DNA of 64,000 nucleotides. It comes from Alphaproteobacteria bacterium SO-S41. Its GTDB lineage: Bacteria > Pseudomonadota > Alphaproteobacteria > Micropepsales > Micropepsaceae. Positions 3,836-41,033 of this stretch are shown in pieces; the first letter of the stretch is position 1; each line of letters opens with the position of its first letter. The stretch spans positions 1,550,001 through 1,614,000 of the forward strand of contig AP024629.1 in assembly GCA_019670725.1 (NCBI GenBank), in the 5' to 3' direction. The notes beneath the pieces are model-generated. The model was not told the DNA's origin and made no database searches. It saw only the letters and a list, made by a program, of their open reading frames with translations. Both the position numbers and the translations under genes were made by a program.

Positions 3836-4912
3836 GTGACATCTATTTTGCGATCAGCCATCCTCTGCGGCGGCTCGGGAACACGCCTGTGGCCCCTTTC
3901 GAGGGAAGACGCGCCCAAGCAATTCCATCCGCTCGTGGGGGAACACTCCCTGCTCAGCGAAACGGTCCGGCGCACGCATCTTATTCCAAATTCGGGCACG
4001 CCTATCGTCCTGACGGCGCAGGCTTATGCGGGTATCGCGCGGGAGCACGCCCGGCTTGTCGGTGTCGAAGACGTCGAAATCATCCTGGAGCCTGCGCCTC
4101 GAAACACCGCCCCCGCAGCGGCACTGGCCGCGCTCCTGGTTGCGGAAACCGACCCCGAGGCGGTCATTGGCCTGTTCCCATCTGACCACCACGTGGCGGA
4201 CGAGCCCGGTTTCCTTGAAACGGTAGAAGACGCGCGGCGGCTTGCGGAAAGCGGGGCGATCGTAACCCTCGGCATCGTGCCTGACGCGGCGCATACGGGA
4301 TACGGCTACATCAGGCGCGGCGACGCGGTCCAGGGCGGGTTCAAGGTCGATCGCTTTGTCGAGAAGCCGAATGCCGAAACGGCGGCGATCCTGTTCTCGG
4401 ACAAGAATTACTACTGGAACGCCGGTATCTTCTTTTTCCGCGCCGACGTTTTCCTGCGCGAACTCGCGGCGTTCCGTCCCGATATCCTGGCCGCTGCGAA
4501 GCGCGCCTGGGCGCAAGCGAAACGCTCGGCCGAAGGGATCATTGTCGATGCGGACCAGTGGGCGGCATGCCCGAGCGATTCGATCGACTACGCGGTCGCC
4601 GAGCGAACCGCTCATGCCGCGGTGGTGCCCGCCGATATCGGTTGGAACGATGTCGGATCATGGCTGTCCCTGCTGGAGCTTGCCAGTCGAGACCAGGACG
4701 GCAACACCGCGATTGGCGACGTCTCTATCCTGGGGTCGTCGGGATGTTATGTGCGCTCGTCCTCGCGCCACATCGCCATCATCGGCGCAAGCGATATGAT
4801 CGTTATCGAGACGGCTGACGCCATCTTGGTCGTTCACAAGGATGCAACGCAGGACGTCAAGCGCGCCGCCCAGATGTTCAAACACCAAGCCCAGGCGCTG
4901 GCGGCGGAATGA
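3836..4912 (+). CDS. manC: Mannose-1-phosphate guanylyltransferase
   Basis: Transfers GMP from GTP to mannose-1-phosphate, giving GDP-mannose for polysaccharide synthesis. The 358-residue chain has the nucleotidyltransferase signature LCGGSGTRLWPLSR near the N-terminus with PKQF following, the PRNTAPA motif, and FVEKPN. Its length corresponds to the catalytic domain plus a short beta-helix tail. The C-terminal cupin isomerase domain of bifunctional ManC/AlgA enzymes is absent, and the next gene (AGE family) may supply that isomerase step. The GTG start is preceded by GGGGA. The stop overlaps the next start (ATGA). Confidence 0.92.
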   Translation: MTSILRSAILCGGSGTRLWPLSREDAPKQFHPLVGEHSLLSETVRRTHLIPNSGTPIVLTAQAYAGIAREHARLVGVEDVEIILEPAPRNTAPAAALAALLVAETDPEAVIGLFPSDHHVADEPGFLETVEDARRLAESGAIVTLGIVPDAAHTGYGYIRRGDAVQGGFKVDRFVEKPNAETAAILFSDKNYYWNAGIFFFRADVFLRELAAFRPDILAAAKRAWAQAKRSAEGIIVDADQWAACPSDSIDYAVAERTAHAAVVPADIGWNDVGSWLSLLELASRDQDGNTAIGDVSILGSSGCYVRSSSRHIAIIGASDMIVIETADAILVVHKDATQDVKRAAQMFKHQAQALAAE

Positions 4913-6048
4913 GCCCAGCCAGCGAAAATCCCCGCTCGGCCCTGGTGCGTTGGGTCAAGCGCGATGCGCTTCCTCTTTGGCACGAACGCGGCTGGGATGG
5001 AGCGCTTGGGGGATTTGTCGAGCGACTGACACCGAGCGGTGTCCCGGACAGTGCCGCGCCCCGTCGCATGCGCGTTCAGGCAAGGCAGGTTTATGTCTAT
5101 GCCCATGCCGCGGTGCTGGGATGGTATGCGCCGGCGCGAGAGATCGCCTTGCGCGGATTCGAATGGATGAACGCGCGTTGCCGGGCAAAACAGCAGTCCG
5201 GCTTTGTCCACATTGTCGACGCAAACGGCGCCGTGCTTGACGGCAAAATCGATGCCTATGATCAGGCTTTCGGTCTTCTCGCTCTTGCCTGGATGTTTCG
5301 CCTGACGGGCGACGCGCAGATCAGATCCATGATCGACGCCGAACTGGCCTTCATTGACGGGTCGATCGCCGATCCTGCTCACGGCGGATGGCGGGAAGGC
5401 ATCCCGGCGGCGCTTCCGCGCCGACAGAATCCGCAGATGCATGCGTTCGAGGCCATGCTCGCCCTTTACGAGGCGACAAAGGACGTCACGTTCCTGAACC
5501 GCGCAGAGGCCCTTCTTGCCCTCATGCGTGACAGGCTTTTTGATTCCCGATCTGGGTCGCTTGGCGAATTCTTCGACGGCAAGATGCGACCTCTTGAAGA
5601 TCCCGACAGCCGCGTTGTCGAGCCGGGGCACCATTTCGAGTGGACCTGGTTGTTGCTGGCTTATGCCCGGCTAAGCGGTACTGCGCCTTCGCCTTTGGCG
5701 TTGCAGCTCTACGAACGGGCGCGCGAATGGGGGATCGGCGCAAACGGGTTCGTGGTCGATGAAGTGACGCCCGAGGGACGAGCGCGAAAGAGTTCCAGCC
5801 GGCTCTGGCCACAGACTGAATATATCAAAGCCAATCTCGCCCTTCAGGAACACGGCCTGGCGCCTGACGCAGCCCGCCGTGCGGACGAAGCGCTCACAGG
5901 ACTATCCAAAACCTATTTCACGGCGCAGCCGGCTGGTGGCTGGATAGACTGCCTTGATGAAGGCGGTGCGGTAACCGACGCGCGCATGCCGTCTTCGACA
6001 TTCTACCACGTCTTCTGTGCGATCGCCGAGGCCGACAGGGTGGGATGA
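4909..6048 (+). CDS. AGE-family sugar epimerase/isomerase, probably mannose-6-phosphate isomerase type
   Basis: A 379-residue alpha/alpha-barrel protein of the N-acylglucosamine 2-epimerase family. Recognisable active-site segments are MHAFEAMLALYEA, EPGHHFEWTWLL and RLWPQTEYIKAN, with the histidines that act as acid/base in this family. Members interconvert glucose/mannose, fructose/mannose, or their 6-phosphates. Because it is translationally coupled to manC (ATGA overlap), which lacks its own isomerase domain, supply of mannose-6-phosphate from fructose-6-phosphate is the likely role. That is inference from context. It is followed by a further ATGA overlap to a glycosyltransferase gene. 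Confidence 0.85.
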   Translation: MSPASENPRSALVRWVKRDALPLWHERGWDGALGGFVERLTPSGVPDSAAPRRMRVQARQVYVYAHAAVLGWYAPAREIALRGFEWMNARCRAKQQSGFVHIVDANGAVLDGKIDAYDQAFGLLALAWMFRLTGDAQIRSMIDAELAFIDGSIADPAHGGWREGIPAALPRRQNPQMHAFEAMLALYEATKDVTFLNRAEALLALMRDRLFDSRSGSLGEFFDGKMRPLEDPDSRVVEPGHHFEWTWLLLAYARLSGTAPSPLALQLYERAREWGIGANGFVVDEVTPEGRARKSSSRLWPQTEYIKANLALQEHGLAPDAARRADEALTGLSKTYFTAQPAGGWIDCLDEGGAVTDARMPSSTFYHVFCAIAEADRVG

Positions 6049-9752: not shown

Positions 9753-10649
9753 GTGGCGATGCGCCTTCTCGTCACCGGCGCAGAGGGCCAGGTGGGGCAG
9801 GCCCTGCTGGCACTGCCCGTGGCGGGCGCGGCGAAGGGGTTAGGTCGCGCCGAACTCGACATCACCGATCGCGGGGCGATCGAGCGGGCCATTGCCGATT
9901 TCGCGCCGACCGTCGTGATCAACGCGGCGGCCTACACCGCCGTCGATGCCGCGGAGAGCGACGAAGCCGGCGCCTTCGCGGTGAACGCCGCGGGCGCCGG
10001 TCTGCTCGCGGCGGCGGCGGCCGAAGCGGGTGCGGGGTTCGTGCATATCTCGACCGACTATGTGTTCGACGGGCGGCTGTCGCGTCCCTATGTGGAAAGC
10101 GATGCCACCGGCCCGCTGAACGCCTATGGCCGCAGCAAGCGGGCCGGCGAGCTGGCCGTCTTGGACGCTCATCCCCGCGCCAGCGTCGTGCGGACGAGCT
10201 GGGTCTATGCGGCGACCGGCCGGAACTTCGTGCGCACCATGGTGGCGCTCGCCCGCACGCGCGAGCGGGTTCAGGTGGTCACGGATCAGCGGGGCGCGCC
10301 GACCTATGCGGGCGATCTGGCAGTGGCGCTGCTGGGGCTCGCGCAAGCGTCGGCGCGCGATGAGGACCCGCGCGTGCTGCATCTCGCCGGCAGCGGCGCG
10401 GCGAGTTGGTTCGAGGTCGCGGCGGCCATTTTCGAAACGCTGCGCGCGCGCGGGTTGAAAGCACCGGTGCTGGAGGGCGTGAGCGCGGCGGCGTGGCCGA
10501 GCCCGGTGCAGCGGCCGCAGAACTCGATGCTTGATTGTCGGCTGGCATCGGAGACATATGGCCTCGCCCTGCCGGACTGGCGCGACGCCTTGAGGCGCTG
10601 CCTGCAGGAAATACTGGACGATAAGAAGCCGATGCCGGGGTTGTTGTGA
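9753..10649 (+). CDS. rfbD: dTDP-4-dehydrorhamnose reductase
   Basis: Final enzyme of dTDP-L-rhamnose synthesis (RmlD), an NAD(P)H-dependent reductase of about 298 residues. It shows the Rossmann motif [32 protein letters not shown], and YGRSKRAGE with the catalytic Tyr-Lys pair. The GTG start follows the rfbB stop by 1 nt, and its TGA overlaps the GTG of rfbA. Ala/Gly runs are prominent, as expected for this GC content. Confidence 0.94.
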
Positions 10650-11515
10650 GGGGTATTCTACTCGCGGGTGGCAGTGGGACGCGGTTGAAGCCGATCACGA
10701 CGGCCGTCAACAAGCAGCTGCTGCCGATCTACGACAAGCCGCTGGTCTATCATCCGCTGACGACGCTCATGCTGGCGGGGATTCGCGAGATATTGCTGAT
10801 CTCGTCGCCGAGCGCGCTGCCGCAGTTCGAGCGGCTGTTGGGCGACGGCAGCCAATGGGGCCTGCAGATTTCCTATGCCGCGCAGGAAGCGCCGCGGGGG
10901 ATCCCGCAGGCGTTCCTGATCGGCGAGGCCTTCATCGCGGGCAAGCCCTGCTGCCTGGCGCTCGGTGACAATGTCTTCTACGGCGCTGGCCTGACGCAGG
11001 AGCTGCAGACGGCCGCCGCCCTGGCCACGGGTGCGACTGTCTTCGCGCATCAGGTGACGGACCCTTCCGCCTTCGGCGTGGTGGAGCTCGACGGCAGCGG
11101 GCGGCCGGTGTCGATCGCGGAGAAGCCGGCGGAGCCGCGCAGCAACTGGGCGGTGACGGGGCTCTATTTCTACGATGGCGATGTCTGCGGTATCGCGCGG
11201 GACCTGCAGCCTTCGCATCGGGGCGAGCTGGAGATTTCCGCGGTCAATGAAGCCTATCTCAAGCGCGGCGATCTGAAGGTGGTGCGCCTGCAGCGCGGGA
11301 CGTCGTGGCTGGATACCGGGACGGTGCAGGGGCTGATGGAAGCCTCCGAGCTGGTGCGGGCGGTGGAGCATACGCAGGGGCTGAAGATCGCCTGTCCCGA
11401 GGAAGTAGCCTGGCGGAGCGGCTATATCACCCAGGACCGGCTGCTGGCGCTCGCCGAGGAGTATGGCAATTCGTATGGCGCGTATCTGAAGCAGCTTGGA
11501 TCGACCAAGTGGTGA
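10646..11515 (+). CDS. rfbA: Glucose-1-phosphate thymidylyltransferase
   Basis: First enzyme of the rhamnose donor pathway (RmlA), joining dTTP and glucose-1-phosphate. The 289-residue protein starts directly with [16 protein letters not shown], followed by [17 protein letters not shown], and later ALGDNVFYG and [19 protein letters not shown], all diagnostic of RmlA. The GTG start overlaps the rfbD stop (GTGA), and its own stop overlaps the start of the repeat-protein gene in the same way. The four-gene set is thus tightly coupled. Confidence 0.95.
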
Positions 11516-15886: not shown

Positions 15887-17437
15887 CTATTCCGCCTCGG
15901 CGCCCGCCATGCCCATTTCGCGGAGCTTGCGGTAGAGGGTCGAGCGGCCGATGCCGAGGCGGCGGGCGACTTCCGTCATGTGGCCGTCATACAGCTCGAT
16001 CGCGAAGCGGATGAGGTCGTTCTCGATCTCTTCCAGCCGGCGGAGATGCCCGGCCTCGTCCATCGCCTTGATCTCGACGCCGTTCGCGAGGCGAACCGTG
16101 CCGTTGGAGGCGACGGGGGCGGAGGGCGGCCGCGCGGTCTGGCCGGAATAGGCGACGTCGTGACCGACCGCGAGAGCCATCGGCTGGGCTTCGGCGACCG
16201 CTTCGGAAACGACGGCGCGTTCGGCGACGCGGGCTTCGACCTTCAGCTCGATGCCGAGCTGGGCGGCGACCTGGGGGAAATCCGCCATGGTCAAGTGCGC
16301 GGCGTCGCTGAGCACCACGCCGCGGAAGACGGTGTTCTCAAGCTGGCGGATGTTGCCCGGCCAGGCATAGGCGCCGAGCATGTTGAGCGCCGCCGGCTCG
16401 ATGCCGATGACGCGCTTATTTTCCTCGGCGGCGAAGCGCTCGATGAAGAACTGGACGAGATCAGGCAGGTCGTCCATGCGGTCTCGCAAGGGCGGGACCT
16501 GAACGGGGAAGACGTTCAGGCGATAATAGAGATCCTCGCGGAAGCGGCCTTCCTGGGCGAGTTGGGTGAGGTTGCGGTTGGTCGCCGAGATCAGGCGGAT
16601 GTTGATCTTTACCGGACGCTTGGCGCCGACCGGATCGACTTCGCCTTCCTGGATGGCGCGCAGCAGCTTCACCTGCATGTCGAGACGCAGTTCGCCGATC
16701 TCGTCGAGGAAGAGCGTGCCGCCATCGGCTTCCTGGAATTTGCCGATATGCTTCTCGCTGGCGCCGGTGAAGGCGCCCTTCTCGTGACCGAAGAGGATCG
16801 ATTCGATCAGGTTCTCGGGGATGGCGCCGCAATTGACCGCGACGAACGGCTTGTTCGAGCGTTCCGAGGCTTGCTGGATAGCGCGGGCGAGGACTTCTTT
16901 GCCGACGCCCGATTCGCCTTCGATAAGGATCGGAATGTTGGACTGTGCACCGCGCTCGCCGAGGCGCACGACCATGCGCATCGCCGCGGATTTCGCGATC
17001 ATGTCGCTGAAGCCGAGCGCACCGCCGGTGCGTTTCTTCAGGCGCTGCACTTCGCCGGTGAGGGCCTTCACCTTCAGGGCGTTGCGGATGGAGACGAGAA
17101 TGCGTTCGGGGCTGGCCGGCTTCACCAGGAAGTCGTCGGCGCCGGCGCGCATCGCGGAAACCACGGTTTCGATGCCGCCCTGGGCGGTCAGCACGATCAC
17201 CGGCAGGTCGGGCCGGCCGGGACGCATGCGCTTCAGGGCGGTGATGCCGTCCTCGCCGGGCATGACGAGATCGAGCATCAAGAGGCCGATATCGGGGCCG
17301 TGGGCGCCTTCGAGGACGCGGAACATCTCATCGGCTGAGGCGGCCTGGAGCGTCTGATAGCCGTTGCGCTCGATCACCGCCTGCATCAGCCGGCGCTGGG
17401 TCGGGTCGTCATCGACGATGAGGATCGTATGCGTCAT
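15887..17437 (-). CDS. Sigma-54-dependent response regulator, TacA-like (receiver-AAA+-Fis HTH)
   Basis: A 516-residue NtrC-class activator. The receiver domain (1-~120) has the acidic pair in ILIVDDDPTQRR, the phospho-acceptor Asp56 in MLDLVMP, and the lysine in FLVKPAS. The AAA+ domain carries Walker A GESGVGKE, the sigma-54 contact loop GAFTGA, and Walker B LFLDEIGE. The C-terminus is a Fis-type helix-turn-helix (VARRLGIGRSTLYRKL). Receiver and AAA+ sequences resemble TacA, the Caulobacter phosphorelay-controlled activator of stalk genes. No histidine kinase is adjacent. The ATG at 17437 starts exactly at the receiver; a longer frame to 17503 has no support. It could act on the two sigma-54 promoters near hfaA. 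Confidence 0.92.
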   Translation of the reverse strand: MTHTILIVDDDPTQRRLMQAVIERNGYQTLQAASADEMFRVLEGAHGPDIGLLMLDLVMPGEDGITALKRMRPGRPDLPVIVLTAQGGIETVVSAMRAGADDFLVKPASPERILVSIRNALKVKALTGEVQRLKKRTGGALGFSDMIAKSAAMRMVVRLGERGAQSNIPILIEGESGVGKEVLARAIQQASERSNKPFVAVNCGAIPENLIESILFGHEKGAFTGASEKHIGKFQEADGGTLFLDEIGELRLDMQVKLLRAIQEGEVDPVGAKRPVKINIRLISATNRNLTQLAQEGRFREDLYYRLNVFPVQVPPLRDRMDDLPDLVQFFIERFAAEENKRVIGIEPAALNMLGAYAWPGNIRQLENTVFRGVVLSDAAHLTMADFPQVAAQLGIELKVEARVAERAVVSEAVAEAQPMALAVGHDVAYSGQTARPPSAPVASNGTVRLANGVEIKAMDEAGHLRRLEEIENDLIRFAIELYDGHMTEVARRLGIGRSTLYRKLREMGMAGAEAE

Positions 17438-17688
17438 CAAAATCCGTCCGCCCACCGGCGCCGCCGCCGTTTTCGGCCGTGCGGGCGCGCTCAACTGCAC
17501 CAATTCGGGACGACTATGCGGGCGAAACCCCTAATTCGAGGTTTAACAAGACGGTTTTTTGCAGACGGCGGTCTAAGGCTCTCCGCAAATCAGGGCCCGC
17601 CGCGTTGTCCGGTCGATTTAAGGTTCCGCTGGAATTGGCGGATTGGTATTAACTCCAAGGTCGCATTTTGCGGCCCCATGGAGATCGT

Positions 17689-18510
17689 ATGGCCAATGGT
17701 GCCAGGCTGCCGGTTCGCAGCGCCAGCAACAATACGGTCCCTGGCTCGGTGCTCGCGGCGCAGGCACGGGTTATCGGCGCTCTTGTCGTTCGAGATTTGC
17801 GCACGAGAATCCAAGGCGGCTATGCCGGTTATCTCGTCGCCATACTCTGGCCAATGGCGCATTTCGGGATCGTCTTGACGATCTACTTGCTCGTTGCCCG
17901 GCCACCTTCGTTCGGTACCAATCTGATCTTGTGGATCGCGAGCGGCGCCCTGCCGTTTATCGCGTTTGTGTATCCCGTTCGGCTGGTGCCGATGGCGATT
18001 ATGGAAAGCTCGGCGCTTCTTTCGTTTCCCACTGTCAAATCAATCGATATATTCATAGCTCGCTCTATCGTGGAATTTCTGACTTCTTTCACGATATTTG
18101 TCGTTCTTGGTGCAATGATCTTAGTAATATTGCCGGACGTTAAGGTATATAATTTGGGTTTGATCTTTTTCTCGATTTTTGAAGCGATTTCCCTTGGAAT
18201 ATGTTTTGGTGCATTTGGTTTTGCCGCGGTTCGTGTTTGGCCAAAGCTTATTGTATTGATAAATCTTCAGACGATTCTCGTCTGGGCGACCATGGGAATA
18301 TTCTTCATCCCCGATTCTGTGCCCGAGCCTTTTCGGACTTATATCTCCTTTAACCCCGTTCTTCATGCTGCGGAGCGCATGAGAACGGGGATTTATTCGA
18401 ATTATCAATCCATGACACTCAGCGATCTGTATGTGTTCGGATTTTGTGGCGTTTTTCTTTTGCTTGGTCTTTTTATTGACAGGTTCGTTTCGCCAAATTT
18501 TGTGAAATAA
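17689..18510 (+). CDS. ABC-2 type polysaccharide export permease (KpsM/Wzm-like), AT-rich
   Basis: A 273-residue membrane protein with about six transmembrane helices, in the family that exports capsule, O-antigen or other glycans (the segment RTRIQGGYAGYLVAILWPM is typical before the first helix). The C-terminus has FNPVLHAAERMRTGIY, also common in capsule permeases. The ATG at 17689 follows GGAGA; a TTG at 17668 is less likely. From about 18000 onward the sequence is far more AT-rich than anything around it (18121-18180 is about 30% G+C), suggesting acquisition from another genome. The partner ATPase expected beside such a permease is not here. It is divergent from the sigma-54 regulator. 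Confidence 0.88.
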   Translation: MANGARLPVRSASNNTVPGSVLAAQARVIGALVVRDLRTRIQGGYAGYLVAILWPMAHFGIVLTIYLLVARPPSFGTNLILWIASGALPFIAFVYPVRLVPMAIMESSALLSFPTVKSIDIFIARSIVEFLTSFTIFVVLGAMILVILPDVKVYNLGLIFFSIFEAISLGICFGAFGFAAVRVWPKLIVLINLQTILVWATMGIFFIPDSVPEPFRTYISFNPVLHAAERMRTGIYSNYQSMTLSDLYVFGFCGVFLLLGLFIDRFVSPNFVK

Positions 18511-35445: not shown

Positions 35446-36237
35446 ATGTTCATGGCAGGCAATCCGCCGACTCTTCGAAACGGCAGCATGGGGCCTTATG
35501 TCCAGCTGCTGCAGACCGCACTTAACGTCGTTCCTTCCGCCTACACCTATCTCTCCCTCGACGGCATTTTCGGCCCGCTGACCGATAAGCGGGTGCGCGA
35601 GTTCCAAGCCTGGACCGAGCTCGTCATCGACGGCGTCGTCGGCCCAAATACGTGGGGCATGCTGGAATCGCTCGCCGGTGCGCTCGACGAGATCCAGCGA
35701 ACCGCGCGGCTGCGACAGGAAATCGTCAACAAAGCGCTCGATGAATACCGGCTGTACGGGCAGGGTATTCACGCCAAGAAGGCGGGCGAGGCCGATCCGA
35801 ACTCCCAACGGCCGTTCCGGGCGGGCCACGAGCGGCTATGGACCTATTTCCAGATTGCCGCGCCGAACACGTTCAACGAAGAGCCGGTCACGCATCTCCA
35901 CAAGGCCGGCAAGTTGGAACCCTGTGCCCATTGGTGCGGAATTTTCGCGCTGTTCTGCCACATCCAGGCGAAGGTCCCCGATCTCGGGCGGTGGAAGATC
36001 GGCAGCGGCATTTCCTCGGTGCGCGGCTTTCGCGGGACAACGACCCCGACCACGGGCGATGTCGGGTTCGCCAATAACGGCTTCGAGCACCATGTGGTGA
36101 TCGAACGCTCCTATCTCGCGCCGGACGGCTCGATGCTGTTCGACACGATCGAGGGCAATAGCGGCGCCGATAGCTGCATCACCCACAACTACAAACAGCC
36201 CGAATCGCGCTTCGCGACGTATTTCACCGCGTTTTGA
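35446..36237 (+). CDS. Peptidoglycan-binding protein with C-terminal cysteine-hydrolase (CHAP-like) domain
   Basis: A 263-residue protein. Residues ~8-73 form a PG_binding_1 domain (GPYVQLLQTALN, LDGIFGPLTDKRVREFQ, IDGVVGPNTWGML). A helical linker follows (to ~105). The C-terminal part has CAHWCGIFALF with predicted nucleophile Cys164, then GDVGFAN, HHVVIE with His215/216, and IEGNSG with an acid at 236. This order and spacing resemble CHAP or NlpC-like amidases and peptidases. There is no signal peptide. It shares its N-terminal design with the protein at 39386, 3 kb downstream. A cell-wall hydrolase, or a delivered toxin-like enzyme, is possible. Confidence 0.8.
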   Translation: MFMAGNPPTLRNGSMGPYVQLLQTALNVVPSAYTYLSLDGIFGPLTDKRVREFQAWTELVIDGVVGPNTWGMLESLAGALDEIQRTARLRQEIVNKALDEYRLYGQGIHAKKAGEADPNSQRPFRAGHERLWTYFQIAAPNTFNEEPVTHLHKAGKLEPCAHWCGIFALFCHIQAKVPDLGRWKIGSGISSVRGFRGTTTPTTGDVGFANNGFEHHVVIERSYLAPDGSMLFDTIEGNSGADSCITHNYKQPESRFATYFTAF

Positions 36238-39298: not shown

Positions 39299-39385
39299 CG
39301 CGGCGATGCGCCGCGTCGCCGGGCGGCATTCGCGCGGCTATGGATTTGGACGCGGGGGGCGGACCTTCGAACTGGAGCCGCCGAT

Positions 39386-40159
39386 ATGACACTTCTCTGG
39401 AAGGGCGACGTTCTGCCCACCGTCTCGACGGCGCAGATCCTGCTGCGGCGTCACCGGCCCCAAACCGTGATCACAACCGACGGCATTTTCGGACCGAAGA
39501 CCGGCAAGGCGGTCTGGAATTTCCAGAACCACCACGTCCTGAAAAAGGACGAGATCATCGGGCCGAAGACCTGGCACAAACTGGAGGATGTCAGCCGTTT
39601 CCGCACCGTCGACGTGGTGGACGGGACCGATCCCTCGCTGGTGCAGCTGGAGGCGGCCGACCTGCGCAAGGACGGCTATGACCCGATCGTGCTGTTCGGC
39701 ATGTCGAACGGTTTGGAGGTCGCGATGAACCAGATCGCAGCGCGCGGCGGCAATCGCGAGACGATGCTGCTGCGCTTCCACGGGCACGGGAATAACGGGC
39801 TACAGAACGTCACGGGCGGCGAGATCAACGGCGCGCCGCATCTTGCCGCGATCTCGCTGTCCAATTTCGCGCAGATCGAGCACCTGCTGGTGCGCATCAA
39901 GGGCATTTTCGTTGAATTCGGCGCGGTTCAGTTGCTCGGCTGCGATGTCGGCGGCGGCAAGGGCTCAGCGCTGGTCGAGAAGCTCACCAATACCTGGGGC
40001 GTGCCGGTGACGGCGGGCATTCACACGCAGTTCGGCGGCGGCGACAAGACGTTCCGCTTCGAGGGCGCGGTGGTCACGAAGGTGCCCGGCGGCGGCACGC
40101 TGAAATCGTGGTCGTCGGCCATGGAGCTGAAGCACGGCATGGTGTCGGTCGACAGCTAG
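39386..40159 (+). CDS. Peptidoglycan-binding protein with clan CD-like (caspase/DUF4347-like) C-terminal domain
   Basis: A 257-residue protein. Residues ~8-67 form a PG_binding_1 domain (TDGIFGPKTGKAVWNFQ, IIGPKTWHKLEDV). The rest resembles caspase-fold domains of the DUF4347 type: a strand leading to FHGHGNNG with predicted catalytic His132/134, a later strand VQLLGCDVGGGKGS with predicted nucleophile Cys186, and WGVPVTAGIHTQFGGG, which recalls the family's G-x-x-V-x-A segment. There is no signal peptide. The frame is plausible throughout and preceded by GGAG. Its N-terminal half is organised like the 35446 protein. Proteolytic activity is inferred from motifs alone. Confidence 0.75.
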   Translation: MTLLWKGDVLPTVSTAQILLRRHRPQTVITTDGIFGPKTGKAVWNFQNHHVLKKDEIIGPKTWHKLEDVSRFRTVDVVDGTDPSLVQLEAADLRKDGYDPIVLFGMSNGLEVAMNQIAARGGNRETMLLRFHGHGNNGLQNVTGGEINGAPHLAAISLSNFAQIEHLLVRIKGIFVEFGAVQLLGCDVGGGKGSALVEKLTNTWGVPVTAGIHTQFGGGDKTFRFEGAVVTKVPGGGTLKSWSSAMELKHGMVSVDS

Positions 40160-40893
40160 CGGCCGTTCGCGGCGCGGGTCCTAGTCTTGCGCTCGTACAT
40201 CGCGCGGTCGGCGCGGGCCATCGCCTCGGCCGGGTTCTCGCCGGCACGGAATTCATAGGCGCCGGTCGTGTAGGAGAGCGGGATCGCCTTGCCCTCCCAG
40301 ACCAGCGGGCAGGCCTTGATGATCTCGGCCATCATCTCGGCCTTCTTCTCGGCGTCGGCCTGGTTCGCCTTGGCGAGAATGATGCCGAACTCGTCGCCGC
40401 CCAGGCGCCCGATGAGGTCGGAGTCGCGAATGTGGCCCTGCAGGACCTCGCAGACCTGGAGCAGCGCCGCGTCGCCGGCCGCGTGGCCGTACTGGTCGTT
40501 GATGTCCTTGAAGTTGTCGAGGTCGATATAGACGAGGCTGGCGGGCAGGCCGTAGCGCTCGACGAAGGAGAGGATGCGCGACATCTCGCGCACAAAGGCG
40601 CGGCGGTTGAGGCAGGGGACGAGGACGTCCTGGTCGACCTCCCATTCCATCTGGTTGAGGCGCTTGCGCTGATTCTGGAGTTCCTGGCGGAGGTGATCGA
40701 CCTCGCCCATCAGCTTCATGATGGCGTCGCGCACGCGCGGCGTGAACTCGCCGCTGGGAATGCCGAGGACATTCTGGACGTCGGCGATGGTGCGTACATT
40801 GGCGAGCGCACCGGTTCCCTGGGTTCCCGACGACGACCGCGTCGACGCAGAGCCGACGACACCACCGGCTTTAGTCGTGCCTGAAACCCGCAT
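40156..40893 (-). CDS. GGDEF diguanylate cyclase with intact I-site
   Basis: A 245-residue soluble protein that should make cyclic di-GMP. The GGDEF domain has DLDNFKDINDQYGHAAGD (substrate and metal binding) and the intact active motif RLGGDEFG. The inhibitory site RDSD lies exactly five residues before it, so product feedback is expected. The N-terminal ~75 residues are low-complexity then helical (coiled coil from MKLMGEVDHLRQELQNQRKRL), which may promote dimers. The ATG at 40893 is used. It ends 4 nt inside the preceding gene and is divergent from purE. The double PilZ protein in this window is a potential receiver. Confidence 0.93.
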   Translation of the reverse strand: MRVSGTTKAGGVVGSASTRSSSGTQGTGALANVRTIADVQNVLGIPSGEFTPRVRDAIMKLMGEVDHLRQELQNQRKRLNQMEWEVDQDVLVPCLNRRAFVREMSRILSFVERYGLPASLVYIDLDNFKDINDQYGHAAGDAALLQVCEVLQGHIRDSDLIGRLGGDEFGIILAKANQADAEKKAEMMAEIIKACPLVWEGKAIPLSYTTGAYEFRAGENPAEAMARADRAMYERKTRTRAANGR

Positions 40894-41033
40894 GGGTGGA
40901 AAAGCTCTCTGACGCTGAAGGCGGCAGAATGTGCCGGGAGTCGAAACCAAACCGTTAACGAGGCTCTTGCGCTGCGGTTGCGCGGGCGCGGCGTTCCCTT
41001 CTATATCGCCGCCTACCCGGGGAAGATGGACCC

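What the first reader, a model, noticed from the sequence alone, without database searches (positions are those of the whole stretch)
39386..40159. Candidate caspase-like protease with a cell-wall targeting domain
After a PG_binding_1 domain the protein has the order beta strand-H-G-H-G ... hydrophobic strand-L-L-G-C-D-V-G-G-G-K-G-S ... G-V-P-V-T-A. This is the arrangement of DUF4347/CHAT-type clan CD domains, usually found in very large adhesins or in prokaryotic caspase systems. A compact 257-residue version joined to peptidoglycan binding would be a novel architecture.
Basis: inference. Interest (0 to 1): 0.7.

Follow-up and report, generated by a model that had tools for sequence, protein, structure and literature searches.

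The report
Caspase-like protein with wall-binding module
A small bacterial protein joins a cell-wall-binding module to a caspase-like cutting domain; a relative of it sits inside a gene cluster for a molecular syringe, so it is probably a protein that the bacterium injects into other cells.

Summary
ORF 39386-40159 (257 aa) has an N-terminal PG_binding_1 domain (over Pfam's cut-off) and a C-terminal domain related to DUF4347 (single-sequence hit below the cut-off, profile-profile hit far above shuffled controls). His134 and Cys186 are the conserved pair (26 and 28 of 28 aligned sequences); His132 is not conserved. A 22-sequence profile aligns these columns with His186/Cys240 of the solved relative Tce1 (PA0256, PDB 9QPE), a type VI secretion (T6SS) cargo and putative cysteine protease. 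No usable structure model could be made (pLDDT 31 and 40), so the fold rests on homology.

The gene is under purifying selection and shows no signal peptide. Its 34%-identical homologue with the same architecture, in another alphaproteobacterial family, lies in a T6SS cluster. The window's genome has a T6SS about 2 Mb away, and nine further proteins with PG_binding_1 near the N-terminus and no clear signal peptide. Best explanation: a T6SS effector with a Tce1-like peptidase domain behind a PG_binding_1 module. Delivery and proteolysis are inferred; the gene itself is an orphan. New variant of a known kind, moderate interest.

The parts
39386..40159 (+). whole gene, 257 aa, no signal peptide seen; PG_binding_1 + DUF4347-like domain
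   Evidence: purifying selection; weak N-terminal hydrophobicity
39374..39377 (+). GGAG ribosome-binding site, 8 nt before the ATG, kept in the orthologue
39419..39583 (+). PG_binding_1 domain, residues 12-66
   Evidence: Pfam PF01471 31.7 bits, cut-off 23
39671..40084 (+). DUF4347-like (predicted clan CD-type) domain, residues about 96-233
   Evidence: hhalign A3 vs A6 columns 26-163; PF14252 20.5 bits at residues 155-211
39785..39787 (+). codon of His134, predicted catalytic histidine
   Evidence: invariant in the 22-sequence alignment A7; 26 of 28 when the six A6 rows left out of A7 are counted
39941..39943 (+). codon of Cys186, predicted catalytic cysteine
   Evidence: 28 of 28 sequences; aligned columns match Tce1 Cys240

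Best explanation
The gene encodes a type VI secretion effector without a signal peptide. Its C-terminal domain is a divergent DUF4347 domain of the Tce1 (PA0256) type, predicted to be a His134/Cys186 cysteine peptidase with the caspase-hemoglobinase arrangement. Its N-terminal PG_binding_1 domain is a module shared with other proteins of the same genome; it may help dock the protein on the spike or tube, or hold it at the recipient's cell wall. Shown by computation: the two domains, the conserved pair, purifying selection, the homologue in a T6SS cluster, and a T6SS in the same genome. Inferred: secretion by that T6SS, proteolytic activity, the role of the PG_binding_1 domain, and the target (unknown, in a bacterial or a eukaryotic cell).
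For: (1) The homologue L045:3709-4521 (G288, another family of the class, 34% identical, same two domains) lies in a T6SS cluster: ClpB/ClpV-type ATPase (cut by the end of the stretch), Hcp, VgrG, PAAR, FHA with T6SS_FHA_C, then 3 bp on the homologue, then a 93-aa Phage_base_V protein whose gene overlaps its end by 4 bp. (2) The 22-sequence profile finds PDB 9QPE chain G (E 2e-7); its HG and GC columns fall on chain residues 77 and 131, which by my count from Lys110 are His186 and Cys240, the dyad proposed for Tce1, a cargo seen inside the Hcp3 ring (PMC13323088). (3) The window's genome has TssC, two Hcp, VgrG and a ClpV-type ATPase. (4) TssC is in 7 of 8 tested genomes with a compact relative against 70 of 385 in the class sample, and in both carriers of the order, where 5 of 96 genomes have it. 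(5) Ten of the genome's 13 PG_binding_1 matches lie near the start of proteins in which I see no signal peptide; in one the second domain is Peptidase_C70, also fused to PG_binding_1 in G002 and G004. (6) PG_binding_1 is a published T6SS-toxin-associated domain (PMC10673891).
Against: In the window's own genome the gene is an orphan among housekeeping genes (S21, DUF465 and GGDEF by Pfam; ABC transporter, purE and purK by eye), about 2 Mb from the T6SS cluster; among the ORFs of 36-44 kb I saw no vgrG, hcp or PAAR (the rest of the window was not annotated). G003's orthologue is on another contig than its TssC. Of the seven places read by ORF (L044, L045, L046, L049, L102, L103 and the window, about 4 kb each side), only L045 is in a T6SS cluster. 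The link to 9QPE depends on the adhesin-type sequences: the window protein alone and the five-sequence profile A5 do not find it, A6 does (1.3e-5) together with biased hits to designed TIM barrels. Five genomes of the class sample with short but canonical DUF4347 frames have no TssC, nor has G791 (326-aa protein); counting the five, 6 of 11 have TssC (p 0.006 instead of 3e-5), and the split into divergent and canonical was made after the fact. Four of the five TssC genomes of the order belong to the window's genus, and the within-genus test is not significant (p 0.6). Genome size was not controlled. No immunity gene was recognised among the neighbours. PMC10673891 found PG_binding_1 in vgrG loci only in gammaproteobacteria.
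Confidence: 0.55

Rival explanations
1. A peptidase of the cell's own envelope: the PG_binding_1 domain anchors it to the cell's own wall, where it processes surface or periplasmic proteins; it leaves the cytoplasm by an unrecognised route or on lysis.
For: PG_binding_1 scores above its cut-off; PMC3501461 suggests cell-wall binding for caspase homologues with such a domain; the gene sits among housekeeping genes.
Against: No signal peptide or lipoprotein motif seen (hydrophobicity 1.36 against 2.54 for one lipoprotein control); found in only 2 of 96 genomes of the order, which is odd for a housekeeping enzyme; homologue in a T6SS cluster.
Confidence: 0.22
2. A pseudo-enzyme: the DUF4347 domain keeps its fold and binds a partner but does not cut; the protein is a structural or carrier accessory of a secretion machine.
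For: No DUF4347 protein has a proven substrate in the passages I read; Tce1 was not toxic in yeast (PMC13323088); 2 of 19 adhesin domains lack the His.
Against: His134 and Cys186 are kept in all nine non-adhesin rows of A7; for Tce2, mutating the predicted active site alleviated toxicity in yeast (PMC13323088).
Confidence: 0.12
3. A cytoplasmic caspase-like protein of a defence or cell-death pathway.
For: Caspase-like folds occur in such pathways (family knowledge, recalled).
Against: No PADLOC match for the protein or its homologue up to E 1; no defence-like neighbours among the ORFs of 36-44 kb; a peptidoglycan-binding domain is out of place there.
Confidence: 0.05
4. A leftover or relative of a phage endolysin.
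For: The N-terminal part matches PHROGs endolysins (best 3e-13).
Against: Those matches cover only the wall-binding part; the C-terminal part has no match in 50,697 phage records up to E 1, and four scans of viral contigs, one of them with an adhesin-type domain, gave no relative; no phage genes recognised beside it.
Confidence: 0.03

Closest known systems
Tce1 (PA0256) of Pseudomonas aeruginosa, T6SS Hcp3 cargo, PDB 9QPE, and its companion Tce2 (PA2372) (PMC13323088)
   Same: compact protein with a C-terminal DUF4347-type domain (Tce1); the conserved HG and GC align with Tce1's proposed dyad His186/Cys240; a T6SS in the genome
   Different: Tce1's N-terminal domain is predicted to be a beta-sandwich and Tce2 lacks Tce1's extended N-terminus, whereas this protein has PG_binding_1; Hcp binding not tested here; Tce2's sequence was not compared
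DUF4347 (PF14252) domains of very large adhesin-like proteins
   Same: same domain by profile-profile comparison
   Different: those lie mostly in frames of about 450 to 10,000 aa; here 257 aa, divergent, below Pfam's cut-off on its own
PG_binding_1-linked T6SS toxins of gammaproteobacteria (PMC10673891)
   Same: PG_binding_1 at the N-terminus of a T6SS-linked protein
   Different: alphaproteobacteria, and a DUF4347-type C-terminal domain; the passages I read do not name DUF4347
Prokaryotic caspase homologues with a peptidoglycan-binding domain (PMC3501461)
   Same: wall-binding domain plus a caspase-like domain
   Different: the surveyed caspase homologues are another family of the superfamily (my reading); DUF4347 is not named in that paper's main text

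Membership tests
DUF4347 (PF14252) | score over Pfam's gathering cut-off of 24.6 bits | tested here: not met
   20.5 bits, E 4.3e-4; the homologue L045 scores 29.8. I therefore call it a divergent relative, not a Pfam-called member
DUF4347 (PF14252) | profile-level homology over the domain | tested here: met
   hhalign prob 95.3 (A3) and 97.3 (A5), controls far lower
DUF4347 (PF14252) | HG and GC motifs | tested here: met
clan CD cysteine peptidase | His/Cys dyad in the right order | tested here: met
   His134 then Cys186, 26 and 28 of 28 sequences
clan CD cysteine peptidase | caspase-hemoglobinase fold | tested here: inconclusive
   models of pLDDT 30.9 and 39.9, strand-helix order compatible but not usable for a fold search; inferred through 9QPE
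clan CD cysteine peptidase | proteolytic activity | not testable with these tools
   needs an experiment
Tce1-type T6SS effector | sequence relation to 9QPE chain G | tested here: met
   profile of 22 sequences, E 2e-7, and of 19 adhesin domains, 1.3e-5; but the single sequence finds only its PG-binding half in the PDB and the five-sequence profile A5 does not find 9QPE
Tce1-type T6SS effector | N-terminal beta-sandwich as in Tce1 | tested here: not met
   PG_binding_1 instead; the Tce1 feature is from PMC13323088
T6SS effector | T6SS in the same genome | tested here: met
   TssC, Hcp x2, VgrG, ClpV-type ATPase
T6SS effector | linkage to T6SS genes | tested here: inconclusive
   not linked in the window; linked in G288
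T6SS effector | no signal peptide | tested here: met
   hydrophobicity scan and reading, not SignalP
T6SS effector | T6SS-dependent secretion | not testable with these tools
   needs an experiment
PG_binding_1 (PF01471) | score over the cut-off of 23 bits | tested here: met
   31.7 bits
CHAT, gingipain | profile-profile relation | not tested
   no Pfam hit listed up to E 10; no profile comparison made

The most novel reading that the evidence does not exclude
In this alphaproteobacterial genus PG_binding_1 is a general N-terminal loading module for T6SS effectors: one genome carries about ten signal-less proteins in which the same domain heads different C-terminal parts (DUF4347 peptidase, C70 papain-like, CHAP-like, metalloprotease-like, unknown), and the DUF4347 protein is a caspase-like effector that the module carries.
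Probability: 0.25. Interest if true: 0.65.

Novelty: new variant of a known kind. Interest (0 to 1): 0.45.

Why it matters
If true, it links the DUF4347 domain, whose function is unknown in Pfam, to T6SS delivery in a second class of bacteria, and makes PG_binding_1 a usable marker for unrecognised T6SS cargo in alphaproteobacteria. It also gives a small, testable protein for asking whether DUF4347 domains are active cysteine peptidases, which the passages I read leave open for Tce1.

Tried and rejected
The weak PDB matches to caspase-3 (E 0.35-0.68) are not significant and were not used; nor were the designed TIM barrels that the profiles A6 and A7 also hit (no stretch passing on its own).

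More homologues: one genome-contig scan gave only the orthologue; viral contigs, plasmids and phages gave nothing. Weak hits in G175, G082, G340, G486 and G543 were rejected after reading the ORFs (no HG/GC pair, no ORF, or a frame antisense to a long gene). Large frames L047 (G224) and G320 (about 910-920 aa) were kept out of the 'compact' count. Most of the other hits lie in frames over 700 aa; these and G602 (411 aa) were not read.

Phage endolysin and defence readings: judged unlikely. eCIS: no Phage_sheath_1 in G000 or G003; it is present in G288 and G205, so for these two a contractile system other than T6SS is not excluded, but L045's neighbours are T6SS-type (FHA with T6SS_FHA_C, PAAR, Hcp). 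A stand-alone OB protein like that of G288 was sought in the held parts of the window's genome: best hit in L111 at E 0.063, within the VgrG gene.

Rows dropped: A6 took 19 of the 30 DUF4347 loci given out (long, stop-free matches). The alignment A7 took 13 of those 19; the six left out include the two without His (L018 with SEG, L028 with TYG). The 26 of 28 count puts them back.

Full report
What is there. The ORF at 39386-40159 (+) encodes 257 residues. Pfam finds PG_binding_1 at residues 12-66 (31.7 bits, cut-off 23) and a weak DUF4347 match at residues 155-211 (20.5 bits, cut-off 24.6, E 4.3e-4). NCBIfam and PHROGs match the N-terminal part (cell-wall hydrolases, endolysins), apart from one insignificant PHROGs hit (E 0.53) in the C-terminal part.

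It is a real gene. An orthologue in the same genus (G003, L007; apparently the same stretch as L013, JAEUMK010000104.1) is 82% identical. Differences fall 34/23/88 on the three codon positions of 257 codons, NG86 dN 0.12 and dS 0.61, and a GGAG site is kept before the ATG. It follows a DUF465 gene in both genomes (Pfam in the window, by eye in G003). It is rare: 2 of 96 genomes of the order have it.

What the C-terminal domain is. A search of 385 genomes of the class with PF14252 found matches in 39, mostly in frames of roughly 450 to 10,000 aa, and a few compact proteins. One of these, L045:3709-4521 (-) in G288, has the same two domains and is 34% identical; it passes the DUF4347 cut-off (29.8 bits), while its own PG_binding_1 match is below the cut-off (17.9 bits, E 0.0035). 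Other compact relatives are L102, L046, L044, L049 and L103. Profile-profile comparison of the window protein and four relatives with 19 adhesin-type domains gave probability 97.3 and score 72.8, against at most 17.6 in 100 column shuffles and 13.6 for the reversed alignment. In an alignment of 22 sequences only His134, Gly135 and Cys186 are invariant. Six of the 19 adhesin domains were not in that alignment; two of these lack the His, so the full count is His 26 of 28 and Cys 28 of 28.

Link to a solved structure. The profile of the 22 sequences finds PDB 9QPE chain G, E 2e-7; the 19 adhesin domains alone find it at 1.3e-5; the five-sequence profile A5 and the single protein do not. So the link runs through the adhesin-type domains. 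That entry is the Hcp3-Tce1 complex (PMC13323088, passages read): Tce1 is PA0256, which an earlier paper describes as a DUF4347 protein (PMC8262886, passages read). The resolved part starts at Lys110. In the HMMER alignment the aligned His and Cys are chain residues 77 and 131 by my count, that is 186 and 240, the dyad the authors propose. The authors found Tce2 toxic in yeast in an active-site-dependent way and Tce1 not toxic; on E. coli the two papers differ (about 2 log loss of survival with PA0256 in 2021, no marked effect in 2026). Tce1's N-terminal domain is predicted as a beta-sandwich, so this protein's architecture differs. My own models of the window protein were too poor to use.

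Where it acts. The homologue in G288 lies in a T6SS cluster, read on the minus strand: ClpB/ClpV-type ATPase (L115:18545-19996, cut), Hcp (17896-18381), VgrG (15930-17792), a further gene (by eye), a PAAR gene on the other strand (L045:5998-6303, PF05488 2.5e-22), an FHA protein with T6SS_FHA_C (2.1e-43), the homologue 3 bp on, and a 93-aa Phage_base_V protein (3.4e-7) whose gene overlaps its end by 4 bp. The window's genome also has a T6SS: TssC at 3659538, two Hcp, VgrG and a ClpV-type ATPase. The gene itself is about 2 Mb away.

How strong is the association. TssC is found in 70 of 385 class genomes. The four genomes whose divergent compact protein came from the same sample (G205, G243, G288, G322) all have it (Fisher p 0.001); adding the window's genome and G308, found by other searches but members of the sample, gives 6 of 6 (p 3e-5). 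Against this, I set the group after seeing the data; five genomes with short canonical DUF4347 frames (G435, G138, G093, G165, G154) are not among the 70, and counting them gives 6 of 11 (p 0.006). G791, tested, has none. Genome size was not controlled. In the order, 5 of 96 genomes have TssC and both carriers are among them (p 0.002), but four of the five are of one genus, and within the genus p is 0.6.

The N-terminal domain. The genome has 13 PG_binding_1 matches, the most of 96 genomes of the order (next highest 7); it is also one of the few in a single contig. In its genus the TssC-positive genomes have 13, 7, 4 and 5 matches and the TssC-negative one has 2, but elsewhere the number does not follow TssC: the eleven genomes of genus g5 have 2 to 7 without TssC, and the TssC-positive G005 has 3. 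Of the 13, three are ordinary by eye: two transglycosylase-like proteins (L096), of which one starts like a lipoprotein, and an amidase-like protein with the domain at its end (L101). The other ten, the window gene included, have the domain near the N-terminus and show no clear signal peptide (the most hydrophobic stretch, L095b with 2.17 at residue 30, lies inside the PG_binding_1 domain). Their second parts differ: Peptidase_C70 (L099; same fusion in L008 and L010 of G002 and G004), an M35-like match below the cut-off (L094), a CHAP-like part by eye (window 35446-36237), HEGTH by eye (L100), the rest unknown. PMC10673891 (passages read) lists PG_binding_1 among six domains fused to the N-terminus of T6SS toxins or encoded alone in vgrG loci, limited to gammaproteobacteria in that survey. 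I did not see any of the ten next to T6SS genes; of their surroundings I listed ORFs only for the window, L094, L095 and L097, not for L098-L100.

Conclusion. The most likely function is a T6SS-delivered, Tce1-like cysteine peptidase with a PG_binding_1 module (0.55). Eight searches of the held open-access library (DUF4347 itself is in 4 papers) showed me no report of PG_binding_1 joined to DUF4347; I read passages of eight papers only, and subscription papers are mostly not held.

Noticed in passing
window 35446-36237 (+): A second protein that starts with PG_binding_1 and has no clear signal peptide; its C-terminal part looks CHAP/NlpC-like by eye (WCGIFA ... HHVVIE) but has no Pfam match.
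   Followed up: partly
L099:3117-3818; L008:1324-2154; L010:1027-1863 (-): PG_binding_1 fused to Peptidase_C70 (AvrRpt2-like papain fold) in three genomes of the genus (G000, G002, G004), all TssC-positive.
   Followed up: partly
L045:3431-3712 (-): Stand-alone 93-aa Phage_base_V (spike OB) protein whose gene overlaps the end of the PG_binding_1-DUF4347 gene in G288's T6SS cluster; role unknown.
   Followed up: partly
L097:3978-4385 and 4393-5280 (+): Stand-alone PG_binding_1 gene just upstream of a 295-aa ORF without Pfam match; may be a two-gene form of the same arrangement.
   Followed up: no
L095:8538-9644 and 9754-10893 (+): Two neighbouring PG_binding_1 proteins (368 and 379 aa) with C-terminal parts that look alike by eye and have no Pfam match.
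   Followed up: no
L094:7828-8958 (+): PG_binding_1 (20.3 bits, 23.7; cut-off 23) plus an M35-like metallopeptidase match (HELTH) below the Pfam cut-off.
   Followed up: no
window 40156-40950 (-): GGDEF protein convergent with the finding's gene, overlapping its last 4 bp; I did not see it at this place in G003's syntenic stretch when reading ORFs.
   Followed up: no
L053:4853-5611 (+): Beside the ABC transporter, where the window has the CHAP-like PG_binding_1 gene, G003 has a different 252-aa ORF without Pfam match; possibly an exchange site.
   Followed up: no
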